DNA of 64,000 bases from Methylobacterium radiodurans. GTDB lineage: Bacteria; Pseudomonadota; Alphaproteobacteria; Rhizobiales; Beijerinckiaceae. Positions 35,826 to 51,016 of this stretch are shown here, piece by piece. Each line of letters starts with the position of its first letter. Position 1 is the stretch's first letter. Location: contig NZ_CP029551.1 of NCBI RefSeq assembly GCF_003173735.1, forward strand, positions 4,851,001 through 4,915,000, written 5' to 3'. The notes under the pieces were generated by a model. It saw nothing but the letters and a program-made list of their open reading frames with translations, was not told the origin of the DNA and ran no database searches. Both the position numbers and the translations under genes were made by a program.

Positions 35826-36734
35826 TTAACGGGCGGCGGGCTGGCCCGCCTGCTGTGTCGGCGCCTCGCGGGTGCCCCCGTCCTGCTGGAGCAGCGAGAG
35901 GCTGATGGCCCGGGTGACGTGCTCGGCCATGCAGCGCAGGCCGAGATCGTTCAGGCGGAACTGGCGCCCGAGCATGTGGCCCTCGCCCTTGTCGGCGCGG
36001 CCCGCGAGGTAGCGCATCGCCTCGTAGCGCTGCACCAGCGGCACCTGCTCGCGGGCGGCGATCTCGCGCACGGTGCGTACCACGTCGTTGTAGTAGACGT
36101 CGTCGGCGAGGCTCGCGGTGTATTGCGGATCGACCAGCACCACGTCGATGTCGTGCGACTTGATCCAGCGCACGGTGTCGTCGAGGGCGTCCGCGAAGGC
36201 GGAGAGCTCGACGCGGGAGAGCGCGTCGTGGGTGCCGACCTGCCAGACGACGAGATCGGGCTCGAGTTCCGCCACCATGCTGCGCAGGCGCTCGGCCGCC
36301 CCGGAGGCGATCTCGCCCTGCAGCCCGCGCGCCTCGACCTCGACGTCGACGTCCGGCAGCGAGCGCTCCAGCGCCGTCTCCAGCTTGACCGGGTAGGTGG
36401 CCGAGGCCCCGAGCCCCGCCGAGATACCGCCGATGGAGAGCACCCGCACCGGCCGCTTCTCCTTCAGGGCCGCCTTCACGGCCCGGAGCTTTGCCAGGGT
36501 GTAGAGCTGCGAGCCCGGCACGCGGCATTCCGGCGAGAGACTGGCATCGCCCGGCTCCGCGGTGGTCGGAGGCGAGACGACGGTCGGCACCGGCCGGGGG
36601 GCTATCGGCTGCGCGGGCGACTGCGCGGGTTCCTCGGCCCGGGCGAGACTTGCCCCGAGGAGCAGCGCGCCCAGGAGGAGGATCGGCCTCAGACCCGGGG
36701 GCGCGGTTTGCGGGAGCGCCATTCGACGAACCAT
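35826..36734 (-). CDS. Secreted SGNH/GDSL-hydrolase-like protein
   Basis: 302 residues. A signal peptide (PILLLGALLLGASLARAEE) is followed by a Pro-rich linker. The hydrolase core has VRVLSIGGISAG (block I, GGIS rather than GDS), VVWQVGTHDALS (block III) and a C-terminal LNDLGLRCMAEHV with the Asp-x-x-His pair replaced by a looser spacing. It likely removes or adds acyl groups on a periplasmic glycan. It overlaps the OpgC-like gene by 46 bp (or 34 bp if ATG 36722 is used), so the two are coupled. Confidence 0.75.
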   Translation of the reverse strand: MVRRMALPQTAPPGLRPILLLGALLLGASLARAEEPAQSPAQPIAPRPVPTVVSPPTTAEPGDASLSPECRVPGSQLYTLAKLRAVKAALKEKRPVRVLSIGGISAGLGASATYPVKLETALERSLPDVDVEVEARGLQGEIASGAAERLRSMVAELEPDLVVWQVGTHDALSRVELSAFADALDDTVRWIKSHDIDVVLVDPQYTASLADDVYYNDVVRTVREIAAREQVPLVQRYEAMRYLAGRADKGEGHMLGRQFRLNDLGLRCMAEHVTRAISLSLLQQDGGTREAPTQQAGQPAAR

Positions 36735-37780
36735 GCGGTGTAGCCCATCGCGAGCAGGCCGAGGCAGAGGATGACGAGGTCGACCAGCAGGCCGCCGCCC
36801 GTCCAGAAACGCAGGAGCTGCCCGCCCAGGCTCAGGAGCGACCCCATCGAGAACACGGCCAGGGAATTCCGGCCGAGGCGCGCCAGGTAGCCGGCGACCG
36901 GCCCGATCCGGGGCGCGACGAGCCCGTAGACCGCGCGGAACGCCAGCAACACGCCGAGGAAGTGTATCAGCCGCGCGGGCGTCAGGTAAGTTTTGTCGAA
37001 GGTGAACAGCAGCCGCGGTTCCGGCACGCGTAACGGATCGGGCCGAATCTCCAGCACCGCGGAGGCGATACCGAGAAGGACGAGCGCGATGCCGACCGGC
37101 ATCAGCCTGCGCGACCAGCGCGCGAGCGTATCCGATTCGCGGCTCCAGTCCTGAAGCACGAAGCCGAGGACGAGGAGGAACTGCCAGCACAGGGGGTCGA
37201 AGAACCAGTCGCCCTCGCCCGGCCAGGAGGGCAGGTTCCACTCCTCGATCAGGCTGAGGAGATAGAGGCCGCCGGAGAAGACGAGCGCCGCGGCCCGGCT
37301 CTCCCGGGCGATCAGGATGAAGACCGGCGCGATGCCGAGCAGCACGACGTAGAGCGGCAGGATGTTGAAGAAGCCGAGCTGATGCGTGAGCAGCGCGACG
37401 CCGACGACGGTCTGGATCGGGTCGGCGAAGAAGGTGCCGGCATTGTGCCATTCGAGGATCAGCGGGTTGTCGAGCACCAGCGCGGTGCCCGCGATGATCG
37501 CGAGCGCCAGCAGCATCACGGTGAGCTGCGCGCGGTAGACCTCGATCGTGCGCGACAGGAGGCGCACGACGGTGCGCCCGCGCGGCTCGGGATGGCCGTC
37601 GCGGCCGCGGGTGGCGATGCCGATCGACCAGCCGGCCAGGAACACGAACAACTCCGCCGCGTCCGAGATGCCGTACTGCGAGTAGGTGTAGCGCTCGAAC
37701 GTATTGCCCGGCACGTGGTTGATGAAGATCGTGACCAGGGCGAGGCCGCGCCAGAAGTCGATCGCGTTCGGGTCCCGCAT
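36689..37780 (-). CDS. opgC: OpgC-family membrane acyltransferase
   Basis: 363 residues from the ATG at 37780 with about ten membrane spans. The N-terminus AIDFWRGLALVTIFINHVPG carries the conserved R-G and H of OpgC/acyltransferase_3-type proteins; GISDAAELFVFLAGWSIGI follows. OpgC adds succinyl groups to osmoregulated periplasmic glucans; no opgGH is in the window, so the acceptor could be another glycan. It is adjacent to and overlapping a secreted SGNH protein, a combination that suggests periplasmic glycan acylation and its removal. Confidence 0.88.
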   Translation of the reverse strand: MRDPNAIDFWRGLALVTIFINHVPGNTFERYTYSQYGISDAAELFVFLAGWSIGIATRGRDGHPEPRGRTVVRLLSRTIEVYRAQLTVMLLALAIIAGTALVLDNPLILEWHNAGTFFADPIQTVVGVALLTHQLGFFNILPLYVVLLGIAPVFILIARESRAAALVFSGGLYLLSLIEEWNLPSWPGEGDWFFDPLCWQFLLVLGFVLQDWSRESDTLARWSRRLMPVGIALVLLGIASAVLEIRPDPLRVPEPRLLFTFDKTYLTPARLIHFLGVLLAFRAVYGLVAPRIGPVAGYLARLGRNSLAVFSMGSLLSLGGQLLRFWTGGGLLVDLVILCLGLLAMGYTAWFVEWRSRKPRPRV

Positions 37781-37975
37781 CGCGGTGGCGGCTCCGGAGG
37801 GTGTCTGATGGCACGGGCGCGGACGGCGCGTCCTGATACGGTGATGGGGCGGTTCTGCAAAGGCCGTGCAGCTGCGGGAGGCGCGGGAACCCGCGTCGCA
37901 GGACGCCGGCCGCGAACGATGCGGCGAACCGGGGCCGCTCTGCCGCGTTGGGGGCGCGAAAGGAGGATCTTCCCG

Positions 37976-38275
37976 ATGATCCACTCATGCTTCTCACTGA
38001 CGCGCGCGATCCTGACTGTCCCGGCCGTGCTCTCGGCCGCCCTCGCGATCGCCGCGCCGACCGGCGCTCAGGCTCAGGCGCAGACCGGCACCGGGGGCGG
38101 CCCGACCTCGACCGTGACCGCCCCGAACGCCTCGTCGGTGGGGCGGGTGATGCCGCGGCCCGGAGCGGGCGGCGCCGAGGCCGACTCGCGAATGGATCGC
38201 CTCGAGCGGACGCCGCAGATGAAGGCCGACGACAAGATCCAGAAGGGCATCTGCATCGGCTGCGGTGCCAAGTAG
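37976..38275 (+). CDS. Small secreted protein with C-terminal CIGC motif (paralogue A)
   Basis: 99 residues with a strong AAGGAGG site before the ATG. A signal peptide (ILTVPAVLSAALAIAAPTGA, cut near AQA) precedes TGTGGGPTSTVTAPN, a Pro/Gly-rich low-complexity middle, and the invariant end IQKGICIGCGAK. It has only two Cys, both in the C-terminal CxxC, suggesting metal, haem or redox use in the periplasm. A second protein with the same layout is encoded at 50759-51016. I know no described family. Confidence 0.8.
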   Translation: MIHSCFSLTRAILTVPAVLSAALAIAAPTGAQAQAQTGTGGGPTSTVTAPNASSVGRVMPRPGAGGAEADSRMDRLERTPQMKADDKIQKGICIGCGAK

Positions 38276-38335
38276 GGCCCCTCATCGGGGCTTCGCAAGC
38301 AGGCGCCGATGGGCGGCCTCCGGCTCAGTAGCGGC

Positions 38336-39373
38336 ATGATCGACCGCACGACCCGCCAAGCCCGCCGGAAGCCCCGGGCACCGCGCACCCTTCTCGCCGC
38401 AGCGCTGGCCGCGCCGCCCGCGCTCGCGGACGGGATCCGCCTGCACCTGCCCCTCGCCTGCGAGCCCCGACGGACGTGCTTCGTGCAGCACTACGTCGAT
38501 CGCGACCCGGGGCCGGGTGCGCGCGACTACGCCTGCGGCAGCCGCACCTACGACAAGCACGACGGCACGGATTTCCGCGTGCGGACCGGCGCGGAGGCGC
38601 GGGGGGAGGCGGGGCGCGTCCTCGCGGTGGCGCCTGGGCGTGTCCTGCGGGTCCGCTCCGACATGGCGGACGGGCGCGTGCGCGGGGCGGACGCCGCCGA
38701 GATCAAGGGCGTGGAATGCGGCAACGGGCTGGTCGTCGCCCACGCGGACGGCTGGGAGAGCCAGTATTGCCACATGGCGCGGGACAGCCTCGTGGTTCGC
38801 CCCGGTGACCCGGTCGCCGCCGGCCAGACTCTCGGCCAGGTGGGCCTCTCGGGCATGACCGAGTTCCCCCATCTCCACCTTACGCTGCGGCAAAACGGGC
38901 AGGTCGTCGATCCCTTCGCGCCGGAGGGGGCACCCGATACCTGCGATCCGGCGGCGCCGGGGCGCGGCGGCACGCTGTGGGAGCCGAAGACTGCTGCTGC
39001 CCTCGGTTATCAGTCGGGCAGCGTCCTCAATGCCGGCTTCGCCGACGCGGCGGTGAGTATGGAGGACGTCGAGGCCGCGACGCTGCGCATGCCCGGAGCG
39101 GATTCGGGCGCGCTCGTCGCCTACGTGCGTGCGATCGGGCTGGAGACCGGCGACGTGCAGAGCCTCGTCCTCACCGATCCGGGCGGCGCGGTCGTGGCCC
39201 AGAGCGTCCAGCCCGCCCTGGAGCGTCCGCGGGCGCAGTCGCTGCTCTTCGTCGGGCGGAAGCGTCCTGTGGAGGGATGGGCCGCCGGCACCTTCACGGC
39301 CCGCTTCTGGGTGGAGCGGGGTGGCCGCGTCGCCCTGGAAAAGACGTTCGGGCTCGCGCCGCGCGACCGCTGA
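38336..39373 (+). CDS. M23-family peptidase (LytM-type), secreted
   Basis: 345 residues. A signal-like N-terminus (RTLLAAALAAPPALAD) precedes an M23 domain with KHDGTDFRV (zinc His and Asp) and EFPHLHLTL (HxH). The zinc set looks complete, so it is probably active on peptidoglycan cross-links. A C-terminal beta domain of about 120 residues (AVSMEDVEAATLRMPGADSG to the end) is not recognised and may bind substrate. ATG 38309 is an alternative start. Confidence 0.88.
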   Translation: MIDRTTRQARRKPRAPRTLLAAALAAPPALADGIRLHLPLACEPRRTCFVQHYVDRDPGPGARDYACGSRTYDKHDGTDFRVRTGAEARGEAGRVLAVAPGRVLRVRSDMADGRVRGADAAEIKGVECGNGLVVAHADGWESQYCHMARDSLVVRPGDPVAAGQTLGQVGLSGMTEFPHLHLTLRQNGQVVDPFAPEGAPDTCDPAAPGRGGTLWEPKTAAALGYQSGSVLNAGFADAAVSMEDVEAATLRMPGADSGALVAYVRAIGLETGDVQSLVLTDPGGAVVAQSVQPALERPRAQSLLFVGRKRPVEGWAAGTFTARFWVERGGRVALEKTFGLAPRDR

Positions 39374-47194: not shown

Positions 47195-47364
47195 GGGACG
47201 GCCCGGGGTCGGACGATCTGCCGCCTTCTCGTCGGGCGCGCCCGTGCCGATCTCTTGTCCGGAGATTGGAGACTCCTGGTGACGGGCGGGCGGCGCGGAT
47301 CGCGGGCACCGCTCGGCGGCGCTAGGGTGCTCCGGCCCCGGCGGCGCGAGCGAGCGTGCGGCGT

Positions 47365-49590
47365 ATGAACCAGCGGGTAAGACCGCAGAGCGTAGAGCGC
47401 GGCGCGCCCGTCGAGGTGCTGGCCGGCACGATCGAGCGCGTCACCTTCCACAGCCCCGAGAGCGGCTTCTGCGTGCTCAAAGTGCAGGCCAGGGGCCGGC
47501 GCGACCTCGTGCCGGTCGTCGGCCACGCCCCCGCGATCGCGGCCGGTGAGTGGATCACCGCCACCGGGGCGTGGGTCTCCGACCGCCAGCACGGGCTGCA
47601 GTTCCGGGCCGACACCCTGAAGGTCACCCCGCCGACCGGGCCGGAGGGCATCGAGCGCTACCTCGGCTCGGGCCAGATGCGCGGCATCGGGCCGGCCATG
47701 GCGAAGCGCATCGTCGCGGCCTTCGGCGAACGCACCTTCGAGATCATCGAGGCCGAGCCGCACCGGCTCACCGAGATCGGCGGGATCGGGCGCACCCGCG
47801 CCGCCCGCATCGTCGCGGGCTGGGCCGAGCAGCGGGCGGTGCGCGAGATCATGCTGTTCCTGCACGCCCACGGCGTCGGCACGGCCCGCGCGGTGCGCAT
47901 CTTCAAGACCTACGGTCACGAGGCGATCGCGGTGATGAGCGAGGACCCGTACCGGCTCGCCCGGGACGTGCGCGGCATCGGCTTCCGCACCGCCGACGCC
48001 ATCGCGATGAGGCTGGGTCTCCGGCCCGACGCGCCGCAACGCCTGCGCGCGGGCGTCGCCTTCGCGCTTCAGACCGCGATGGACGAGGGGCATTGCGCGC
48101 TGCCGCTGGAGCACCTCTCGGGCCTCGCCGAGAAGCTCCTGGAGGTCGAGGCGCCGCTGGTGCGCGCGGCGATTTTCGAAGCGCTCGCCCGCGCCGAGGA
48201 CGTCGTCGCCGACACGGCGGCGGGCGAGCCCTGTGTCTTCCTCAAGGGCCTGCACGCGGCCGAGCGCGGCATCGCCGAGCGGCTCCTGCGCCGGGCCGCG
48301 GGCGCCCCGCCCTGGCCGGCGATCGATCTCGACCGGGCGCTCGCCTGGGTCGAGGAGCGGACGGGCAAGACCCTCTCGCCCTCGCAAGGGGAGGCCGTGC
48401 GCCTGCTGCTTGCCTCGAAGATCGCCGTGATGACCGGCGGCCCCGGCGTCGGCAAGACCAGCACCCTCGATTCGGTGCTGCGCATCCTCACGGCCAAGGG
48501 CGTGCGGGTGCTGCTCGCCGCGCCGACCGGCCGGGCGGCCAAGCGCATGAGCGAGCAGACGGGGCTGGAGGCGCGCACGATCCACCGCCTGCTGGAGTTC
48601 GACCCGCGCCACGGCGGCTTCACTCGGACCGAGCAGAACCCCCTGCCCTGCGACCTCCTCGTCCTCGACGAGTGCTCGATGATCGACGTGCCGCTGATGC
48701 ACGCGCTCCTGAAGGCCGTGCCGGAGCAGGCCGGCCTCCTCCTCGTCGGCGACGTCGACCAGCTTCCCTCGGTCGGGCCCGGTCAGGTGCTCGCCGACGT
48801 GATCGCCTCGGGCGCCGTGCCGGTGGCGCGGCTGACCGAGGTGTTCCGGCAGGCGGCCGAGAGCCGGATCGTGCTCAACGCCCACCGGATCAATGCCGGG
48901 CGGATACCGGAGCGCCCGCGACCGGGCGAGCGGGCCGACTTCTACATCGTCGAGGTTGAGGATCCGGAAGCGGGCGTGGAGCGCCTGATCGAGGTGGTGA
49001 CCCGGCGCATCCCGGCGGCCTTCGGGCTCGACCCGAACCGCGACGTGCAGGTGCTGACGCCGATGCAGCGCGGCGCGATGGGTGCGCGCAGCCTCAACGT
49101 CGCCCTCCAGCGCGTCCTGAATCCGGATCCGCCGGCCCAGGTCGAGCGCTTCGGCTGGCGCTTCGCCTCCGGCGACCGGGTGATGGAGACGCAGAACGAC
49201 TACGACCGCGAGGTCTTCAACGGCGATCTCGGCCGGATCCTGCGCCTCGACGAGGACGAGGGCGCCGTGGTGGTCGATTTCGAGGGTCGGGAGGTCAGCT
49301 ACCCGTTCGGTGAGCTGGACACGCTGGTGCCGGCCTTCGCGACCACGATCCACAAGAGCCAGGGCTCCGAGTACCCGGCTGTGGTTATCCCCTTGGTGAC
49401 GCAGCACTACACGATGCTGGCGCGCAACCTGCTTTATACCGGGGTGACACGCGGGCGGCGGCTCGTGGTGCTGGTCGGCCAGCGCCGGGCGATCGCCATG
49501 GCGGTGCGCGGCGGGCATCGCCGCCGCTACACGAAGCTCGCCGAGTGGCTCGGCGCTCCCGCAGTTCAGGATCTGCGACGTACGGCGTAG
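47365..49590 (+). CDS. recD2: RecD2-like SF1B DNA helicase
   Basis: 741 residues. An N-terminal OB-like domain (GTIERVTFHSPESGFCVLKV), then HhH segments (MRGIGPAMAKRIVAAFGERT; GGIGRTRAARIVAGW), then the helicase core. Walker A is MTGGPGVGKTSTLDS (about residue 358 on), Walker B LLVLDECSMIDVPLM, and motif VI FATTIHKSQGSEYP with LLYTGVTRGRRLVVL. Like other RecD2 proteins it stands outside RecBCD. The start could be GTG 47356 instead. It overlaps the next minus-strand gene by 25 bp at the 3' end. Confidence 0.95.
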   Translation: MNQRVRPQSVERGAPVEVLAGTIERVTFHSPESGFCVLKVQARGRRDLVPVVGHAPAIAAGEWITATGAWVSDRQHGLQFRADTLKVTPPTGPEGIERYLGSGQMRGIGPAMAKRIVAAFGERTFEIIEAEPHRLTEIGGIGRTRAARIVAGWAEQRAVREIMLFLHAHGVGTARAVRIFKTYGHEAIAVMSEDPYRLARDVRGIGFRTADAIAMRLGLRPDAPQRLRAGVAFALQTAMDEGHCALPLEHLSGLAEKLLEVEAPLVRAAIFEALARAEDVVADTAAGEPCVFLKGLHAAERGIAERLLRRAAGAPPWPAIDLDRALAWVEERTGKTLSPSQGEAVRLLLASKIAVMTGGPGVGKTSTLDSVLRILTAKGVRVLLAAPTGRAAKRMSEQTGLEARTIHRLLEFDPRHGGFTRTEQNPLPCDLLVLDECSMIDVPLMHALLKAVPEQAGLLLVGDVDQLPSVGPGQVLADVIASGAVPVARLTEVFRQAAESRIVLNAHRINAGRIPERPRPGERADFYIVEVEDPEAGVERLIEVVTRRIPAAFGLDPNRDVQVLTPMQRGAMGARSLNVALQRVLNPDPPAQVERFGWRFASGDRVMETQNDYDREVFNGDLGRILRLDEDEGAVVVDFEGREVSYPFGELDTLVPAFATTIHKSQGSEYPAVVIPLVTQHYTMLARNLLYTGVTRGRRLVVLVGQRRAIAMAVRGGHRRRYTKLAEWLGAPAVQDLRRTA

Positions 49591-50758: not shown

Positions 50759-51016
50759 ATGCCCCTGTCCCTCGCCCGCGCCGTATTGGTTGCCGCACTG
50801 CTCCCGACGCCCGCTCGCGCCCAGGCCGACCGCACCGGAACCGGCGGCGGTCCGCTCTCCACGGAGCGCGCCGGCAACGTGACGGCGTCCGGCCAGACCA
50901 AGCCGCCGGGCCGCGCCGCGAGCCCGACCGCGCGGAGCGATACGGAGCGCGCACCGGACGGGCAGACGCGCGGTGGGATCAGCACCGGCATCTGCATCGG
51001 CTGCAACGCGAAGTGA
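50759..51016 (+). CDS. Small secreted protein with C-terminal CIGC motif (paralogue B)
   Basis: 85 residues with GGAG 6 bp before the ATG. Signal peptide (LARAVLVAALLPTPARAQA), then TGTGGGPLSTERAGN, a polar Pro/Ala/Thr-rich middle, and STGICIGCNAK at the end. It matches the protein at 37976-38275 in layout, in the TGTGGGP block and in the ICIGC tail, while the middle differs. The two Cys are the only ones. It sits beside the aldehyde dehydrogenase gene, convergent with it. Confidence 0.8.
   Translation: MPLSLARAVLVAALLPTPARAQADRTGTGGGPLSTERAGNVTASGQTKPPGRAASPTARSDTERAPDGQTRGGISTGICIGCNAK

What the first reader, a model, noticed from the sequence alone, without database searches (positions are those of the whole stretch)
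37976..38275. Small secreted protein family with invariant C-terminal GICIGC tail (copy A)
Two unlinked genes (this and 50759-51016) encode signal peptide + TGTGGGP block + low-complexity middle + ICIGCxAK at the very end. Only the ends are conserved, as if the tail is the functional unit (metal, haem or thiol exchange) and the rest a tether. I know no named family. This copy lies between envelope-glycan genes and an M23 peptidase.
Basis: partly seen in the sequence, partly recalled or inferred. Interest (0 to 1): 0.7.

Follow-up and report, generated by a model that had tools for sequence, protein, structure and literature searches.

The report
Portable C-terminal ICxGC cysteine tail
Several unrelated exported proteins of Methylobacterium end in the same tiny two-cysteine tail, which suggests that the tail itself, and not the protein it hangs on, is the working part; what it does is not known.

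Summary
Both genes are real. Copies A (37976-38275) and B (50759-51016) belong to a small exported family with 1-7 profile matches in 108 of 111 Methylobacterium genomes and more distant members in other genera of the order. No Pfam or NCBIfam model covers either copy. TGTGGGP and the final AK are lineage-specific; [IV]C-x-[GN]-C followed by 0-3 residues and the stop is what stays.

A pattern search for the tail alone found six exported proteins in this genome, two with unrelated bodies. All pattern hits of eight other Methylobacterium genomes gave 52 in-frame tails, 43 of them ending exported ORFs, including lipoproteins and TonB-domain proteins. The same test on 30 loci outside the order gave 7 in-frame tails, none exported.

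An ECF-sigma-type promoter, [GC]AAC[CT]-N15/16-CGTT, precedes copy A and 47 of 79 family members tested (shuffles: 0.5).

Haem c and MNIO modification are unlikely. Best reading: an extracytoplasmic dithiol tail handling soft metal or disulfides. Main rival: a recognition tag. The chemistry is untested.

The parts
37926..37949 (+). ECF-sigma-type promoter element GAACC-N15-CGTT upstream of copy A (preceded by C, so CGAACC)
   Evidence: genome-wide hit 4888926-4888949
37976..38275 (+). copy A, 99 aa exported protein, stop included
37976..38080 (+). predicted signal peptide of copy A (residues 1-35, ...GAQAQA|QTG; judged by eye, no SignalP run)
   Evidence: sequence
38084..38104 (+). TGTGGGP block of copy A (residues 37-43), typical of Methylobacterium members, absent from the members read in other genera
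38138..38167 (+). middle motif VGRVMPRPGA of copy A (Gly56 invariant, Pro60 nearly so)
38249..38272 (+). tail ICIGCGAK of copy A (residues 92-99)
50759..51016 (+). copy B, 85 aa exported protein, stop included; no match to the promoter regex, only a CGTT at -29
50990..51013 (+). tail ICIGCNAK of copy B
36689..37780 (-). OpgC (PF10129) gene, divergent neighbour of copy A, also beside it in 26 of the 30 best genus loci
38309..39373 (+). M23 peptidase gene downstream of copy A; adjacency seen in 3 of the 30 best genus loci

Best explanation
Shown by computation: [IV]C-x-[GN]-C at the extreme C-terminus is a portable tail. It is carried by exported proteins with otherwise unrelated bodies (small low-complexity proteins of about 80-120 aa, lipoproteins, a TonB C-terminal domain). 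The core family to which copies A and B belong often has an ECF-type promoter. Inferred: the mature protein is sent across the inner membrane, its body acts as tether or address (soluble periplasm, lipid anchor, TonB-type contact), and the tail presents two closely spaced thiols on a tight turn. The tail then binds a soft metal ion (most likely Cu(I), in the manner of the CxGC loop of Atx1-type metallochaperones) and/or exchanges disulfides with a shared extracytoplasmic partner that also recognises the fixed Ile and Gly. In the core family this capacity would be raised under stress by an EcfG-like ECF sigma factor.
For: Exactly two Cys after residue 30 in 196 of 198 listed members with a tail at the end, both in the tail. 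Ile (195) or Val (3) before the first Cys, Gly before the second in 197 of 198, 0-3 residues after it in 198 of 198; of the other 4 of 202 proteins, three lack the end and one, P0112, has CIGC followed by a long extension. Unrelated bodies: 13 single-linkage clusters among 120 tail-bearing ORFs, of which I judge 2 spurious. PF13103 TonB_2 in two of them at E 1.1e-10 and 5.9e-10, above cut-off, while the three TonB relatives I read, of 12 matching plasmid records, end right after the domain. Members with a lipobox by eye (L264, L277, L293) already have a membrane anchor, so the tail is unlikely to be only an anchor. Tail-pattern hits that are in frame end exported ORFs in 43 of 52 cases in eight genus genomes and in 0 of 7 outside the order. 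ECF-type promoter upstream of 47 of 79 members against a mean of 0.5 in shuffles and 1 on the reverse complement.
Against: Strict Ile and Gly are more than a plain metal or disulfide site needs. A CxxC in the oxidising periplasm would normally be oxidised (established knowledge of DsbA), which fits disulfide better than Cu(I). The promoter is missing in 32 of 79 upstream regions and in 29 of 37 further tail genes, copies B, C, D, E and F included, so stress control is not common to all tailed proteins. The base before the -35 AAC[CT] block makes it mostly CGAACC, not the GGAAC of the EcfG consensus.
Confidence: 0.42

Rival explanations
1. The tail is a C-terminal recognition tag. A dedicated, still unidentified extracytoplasmic enzyme or receptor recognises ICxGC at the C-terminus of exported proteins and processes, attaches or localises them through a cysteine, in the way CTERM-type tags are used.
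For: Portability over unrelated exported bodies and lipoproteins, 3-7 exported tailed proteins in each of eight genomes read in full for this pattern and six in this genome. Strict Ile and Gly beyond the Cys pair. Position locked to the last residues.
Against: No transmembrane segment or basic cluster follows the motif, unlike MYXO-CTERM as its abstract describes it (PMC11980579, start of abstract in the listing). No single neighbour gene goes with the tail genes of different groups. Tailed lipoproteins are already anchored.
Confidence: 0.3
2. The two cysteines only form a structural disulfide, within the tail or between two chains, that caps or dimerises small stress proteins.
For: Two Cys, exported, no other Cys in 196 of 198; established knowledge that the periplasm oxidises CxxC.
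Against: Does not explain why Ile and Gly are fixed, why the tail is terminal, or why it is reused on TonB domains and lipoproteins.
Confidence: 0.13
3. All tailed proteins are one fast-diverging family by descent, so the tail is merely its last recognisable remnant and no separate module.
For: Core, D-type and several other bodies share a GxTxP-PG middle and link up by single linkage (83 of 120 ORFs in one cluster).
Against: TonB-domain proteins and lipoproteins with the same tail are hard to see as remnants of a short low-complexity body; three TonB relatives read elsewhere lack the tail.
Confidence: 0.08
4. Nascent-chain sensor or leader peptide (like CruR or CutF) that controls a downstream gene through its C-terminal CxxC.
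For: Exported, C-terminal CxxC. CruR senses copper through CXXC (abstract of PMC9426467). One group lies upstream of a co-directional acetyl-CoA-synthetase-like gene (name by eye).
Against: By my reading of the crude gene maps about 25 of the 30 best genus loci have a convergent gene downstream. Copies A and B have no RAPP motif, which CruR uses for arrest (abstract). The tail is at the stop codon, so it would still lie in the ribosome tunnel at termination (inference).
Confidence: 0.03

Closest known systems
Atx1/CopZ-type HMA metallochaperones (MxCxxC, often CxGC; motif recalled, not from a call)
   Same: C-x-G-C spacing with a hydrophobic residue nearby; two thiols on a short loop
   Different: HMA sites lie near the N-terminus of a folded cytoplasmic domain; here the motif is the extreme C-terminus of exported, mostly low-complexity proteins
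C-terminal redox arms such as those of high-Mr thioredoxin reductase or MerA (recalled)
   Same: cysteine pair within the last residues on a flexible arm
   Different: those arms serve one enzyme; here the same tail sits on several unrelated exported bodies without an enzyme domain
MYXO-CTERM / PEP-CTERM sorting tags (PMC11980579, start of abstract in search listing only)
   Same: short portable C-terminal signature with invariant cysteine, several per genome
   Different: MYXO-CTERM is described there as tripartite, and further segments follow the signature (a transmembrane helix and an Arg-rich end, recalled); here 0-3 residues follow the second Cys
CruR (DUF2946) copper-responsive upstream ORF, PMC9426467 (abstract and outline read)
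   Same: CXXC motif in a small protein
   Different: CruR heads operons and has a C-terminal RAPP arrest motif; copies here are mostly single genes with changing neighbours
MNIO-modified copper-binding peptides (methanobactin, bufferins; recalled; PF05114 partner)
   Same: small proteins with Cys near the end
   Different: no PF05114 match in this genome
EcfG general stress response promoters (Sphingomonas motif GGAAC-N17-20-GTT, PMC6599016, passages read; Methylobacterium has the largest number of EcfG proteins, PMC4814048, passages read)
   Same: AAC in the -35 box, CGTT in the -10 box, compatible spacing; GCAACC and CGAACC variants appear in that paper's target table
   Different: first -35 base mostly C here; which ECF sigma acts was not determined

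Membership tests
c-type cytochrome / haem c attachment | CxxCH (His after the second Cys) | tested here: not met
   0 of 198 tails have His there; next residue is N, G, S, D, A, E, R, K, T or none
MNIO RiPP precursor (methanobactin, bufferin) | PF05114 enzyme encoded in the genome | tested here: not met
   0 matches in the own genome; 2 of 14 control genomes positive
CTERM sorting tag (MYXO-CTERM, PEP-CTERM) | further segments (transmembrane helix, basic end) after the signature | tested here: not met
   0-3 residues after the second Cys in 198 of 198
CTERM sorting tag (MYXO-CTERM, PEP-CTERM) | several unrelated exported proteins per genome share the C-terminal signature | tested here: met
   six in this genome; 43 of 52 in-frame tails in eight genomes, 3-7 per genome; 0 of 7 outside the order
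CruR / DUF2946 | DUF2946 domain match | tested here: not met
   no Pfam or NCBIfam match for copy A; copy B only a sub-threshold DUF1156 hit
HMA metallochaperone | HMA domain match | tested here: not met
   no Pfam match up to E 1 other than the DUF1156 hit of copy B
HMA-like Cu(I) site (works like) | binds Cu(I) through CxGC | not testable with these tools
   needs purified peptide
EcfG regulon | EcfG-type promoter upstream | tested here: inconclusive
   strong ECF-type element in 47 of 79, but preceded mostly by C, giving CGAACC rather than GGAAC
EcfG regulon | expression lost in phyR or ecfG mutants | not testable with these tools
   no expression data at hand

The most novel reading that the evidence does not exclude
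ICxGC is a new class of portable C-terminal signature in Hyphomicrobiales: an unknown extracytoplasmic enzyme or receptor acts on the terminal cysteine pair of several unrelated exported proteins per genome (3-7 by a pattern that undercounts), giving them a shared modification, metal centre or destination.
Probability: 0.35. Interest if true: 0.85.

Novelty: new variant of a known kind. Interest (0 to 1): 0.66.

Why it matters
A five-residue tail that is kept almost to the letter while everything in front of it changes points to an unseen extracytoplasmic system in a common group of plant- and soil-associated bacteria. It would give a handle on proteins annotated only as hypothetical, links some of them to ECF-sigma control, and can be tested with one reporter fusion and one mass spectrum.

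Tried and rejected
MNIO RiPP reading: no PF05114 in the genome. Haem c: no CxxCH. Leader peptide of the CruR kind: downstream genes mostly convergent (by eye on crude gene maps). Pairing with the M23 peptidase: 3 of 30 loci only.

Search outside the order: the class-level profile search of 385 genomes gave 21 with E <= 0.01, 3 of them known members and 18 outside the order, best E 2.5e-4. Loci were given for 17 of the 18; a scan of these for a C-terminal [VIL]C.[GN]C found one string, in L109, in a stretch broken by stop codons and without a signal peptide, and I read the match translations of 10 of them.

Control against the reading: the reversed pattern is a weak null. In 110 genus genomes the tail pattern gave 833 hits against 217, but in 30 genomes of at least 4.0 Mb outside the order (picked by size from rows G677-G813) it also gave 166 against 78, so hit counts alone prove little; the pattern's TRR also accepts TGG and overlapping hits are counted twice. 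The argument rests on what the hits are: 43 of 52 in-frame tails exported in eight genus genomes, 16 of 21 by hydropathy in 30 loci listed from the genus search, which overlap in part with those genomes, and 0 of 7 in 30 loci outside the order. Some genomes outside the order have high counts (for example G837, 22 against 1) that I could not inspect because their places were not listed.

Own-genome sigma factors: none of the 15 loci was shown to have this promoter at an ECF gene. AAC[CT]-type matches lay in L128, L129 and L132 and GGAAC-type matches in L128, L131, L132, L139 and L141; only the L129 site was clearly upstream of a sigma gene, which looks by eye like rpoH. Plasmid collection: one Methylobacterium aquaticum match for copy A (48% of the query), none for the g78 protein or body F.

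Literature: none of the titles and abstract starts listed described such a tail (10 of 18, 12 of 33, 4 of 4 and 3 of 3 papers listed), and one search found no paper; the library holds open-licence papers only.

Limits: protein 1 was given in the wrong reading frame and repeated in frame (OpgC). Signal peptides were judged by hydropathy and by eye. The hydropathy test passes 114 of 120 tail ORFs and 150 of 778 other ORFs in the loci at hand, but most of the 120 were fetched because they match the family. The fairer figure is: 39 of 52 by the test, 4 more by eye, 9 not exported. Its pattern requires ATC-TGY-NNN-GGN-TGY, so it cannot show other residues or codons there and undercounts. The eight genomes were taken from those whose hits were listed in full (8 of 110), not at random. 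Some start codons chosen by script for the 79 upstream regions are wrong by eye (for example L036, L042), which shifts distances. The 202 proteins are those listed by three searches, the third of which listed 120 of 479 hits.

Full report
Copy A and copy B are two complete small genes with signal peptides, a TGTGGGP block and the tail ICIGCxAK at the stop codon. The back-translated tail occurs twice in the 5.54 Mb genome and its reversed control not at all. The window is G000:C1:4851001-4915000. The genome is a Methylobacterium, judged from the names given to close database relatives.

The family is wide in the genus. A profile of 27 members gives 1-7 matches per genome, 2.9 on average, in 108 of 111 genomes. 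Protein searches list 95 relatives of copy A and 24 of copy B, each list including the query itself, named where named only hypothetical, uncharacterised or secreted protein. No Pfam or NCBIfam model reaches its cut-off for either copy. Of the 202 proteins listed by three searches (the third listed 120 of 479 hits), 198 have the tail at the end. Three of the other four lack the end, and one, P0112, has the motif followed by a long extension. In the 198, the residue before the first Cys is Ile in 195 and Val in 3, the residue before the second Cys is Gly in 197 and Asn in 1, 0-3 residues follow the second Cys, and 196 have exactly two Cys after residue 30.

Outside the genus, 9 genomes of 4 other genera matched in a sample of 199 genomes and 43 genera of the family, in which 10 further matches were same-genus. 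In a sample of 397 genomes of the order, 12 genomes of another family matched, 11 of one genus, g78. The copies I read from both samples have hydrophobic starts and end SICKGC, SICSNC, GICAGC, SICRGC and the like. They lack TGTGGGP but keep a GxTVPxPGA-like middle or have another body. Genus g78, with 6-9 Mb genomes, is probably Bradyrhizobium, which I could not confirm by name. Beyond the order I found no convincing member, with the caveat on uninspected counts.

The tail is portable. A search of this genome for ATC-TGC-NNN-GGN-TGY plus at most nine bases and TRR gave eight hits against three for the reversed control. Six are the ends of ORFs with signal peptides: A, B, C, D, and two (E, F) whose bodies do not cluster with the family. 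In 110 genus genomes a slightly looser pattern gave 833 hits against 217 for the control, 7.6 against 2.0 per genome. That ratio alone is not specific, because 30 genomes of 4 Mb or more outside the order gave 166 against 78. I therefore read the hits. All hits of eight genus genomes, 71 places, gave 52 with the motif in frame at a stop; 43 of these end exported ORFs (39 by hydropathy, 4 by eye), 3-7 per genome, and 9 do not. In 30 loci of the same pattern outside the order 7 were in frame and 0 exported; in 30 loci listed from the genus search 21 were in frame and 16 exported by the same hydropathy test. The bodies include three lipoproteins by lipobox (L264, L277, L293, by eye), two TonB C-terminal domain proteins (L286 and L307; PF13103 E 1.1e-10 and 5.9e-10), an Ala/Lys/Glu-rich coiled-coil-like protein (L258) and several small families. 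Of 12 plasmid records with TonB relatives I read three, from Bradyrhizobium, Methylosinus and Tritonibacter; all three end directly after the domain, so the tail looks like an addition. Body comparison without signal peptide and tail gave 13 clusters among 120 tail ORFs, one of 83 members; I judge two single-member clusters spurious.

Regulation. Upstream of the core family lies [GC]AAC[CT]-N15 or N16-CGTT, most often with 26 bases between CGTT and the start codon (15 of 47). It is present in 47 of 79 upstream regions, against a shuffle mean of 0.5 (maximum 3) and 1 on the reverse complement. The 30 regions from the best genus loci all have it, but they are closely related; 17 of the other 49 have it. 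The element was first seen by eye in these same sequences, so the test is not blind. In copy A it is at 37926-37949. Copies B, C, D, E and F lack a match, as do the 12 upstream regions of loci L069-L080 from the order-level search. In a further set of 37 tail genes, 8 had a loose form against 0.6 in shuffles. The element resembles EcfG promoters: the Sphingomonas paper gives GGAAC-N17-20-GTT and its table has GCAACC and CGAACC variants among targets (PMC6599016, passages). Methylobacterium holds the largest number of EcfG proteins among sequenced Alphaproteobacteria, by the abstract of PMC4814048. The sigma factor is not identified.

Context. Copy A is divergent from opgC (PF10129, E 8.4e-80), a neighbour in 26 of the 30 best genus loci. 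The M23 peptidase (PF01551) is a neighbour in 3 of 30. Other groups lie by an acetyl-CoA-synthetase-like gene, by mtnA-like genes, or between a lysine-aminomutase-like and a DAHP-synthase-like gene (neighbour names by eye). Tail genes thus stand at fixed places within a group but with different partners between groups.

Mechanism. Shown: export signals, a strict terminal motif, portability, an ECF-type promoter for much of the core family. Inferred: two thiols on a tight turn act on a metal or a disulfide partner outside the cytoplasm, and the bodies place the tail. The lipoproteins argue against a mere anchor. The strict Ile and Gly argue for a partner that reads the tail, which is why a recognition tag stays the main rival. 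Haem c and MNIO modification are unlikely, and a leader-peptide role does not fit the gene order.

Verdict. A real, so far unnamed exported family, and beyond it a portable C-terminal ICxGC tail. The finding is more interesting than first described; the function is open.

Noticed in passing
L286:63-473 (-) and L307:63-464 (-): Exported proteins made of a signal peptide, a lone TonB C-terminal domain and an ICxGC tail, without the usual TonB membrane anchor and linker.
   Followed up: partly
G000:C1:467432-467455 (L148): GAACC-N15-CGTT about 95 bases upstream of what looks by eye like an Hsp20-type small heat-shock gene; the genome has 64 such sites against 17 for the reversed control.
   Followed up: partly
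L129 (own genome near 410195): A gene that looks by eye like rpoH has CAACC-N15-CGTT 56 bases upstream of a start codon; L128 has GGAACC-N16-CGTT about 250 bases before its sigma domain.
   Followed up: no
L079, L094, L095, L105: Gly/Met/Ser-rich small exported proteins of the unnamed genus g78 (6-9 Mb genomes) end in SICRGC; another tail-bearing body.
   Followed up: no
class sample: G709 and G837 (f85), G939 (f93), G899 (f172), G910 (f186), G931 (f206): Genomes outside the order with many more tail-pattern hits than reversed-control hits (e.g. G837 22 against 1); cause not seen because the places were not listed.
   Followed up: no
window 47356-49590 (+): RecD2-type helicase gene upstream of the copy B region (Pfam PF14490 and others).
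   Followed up: no
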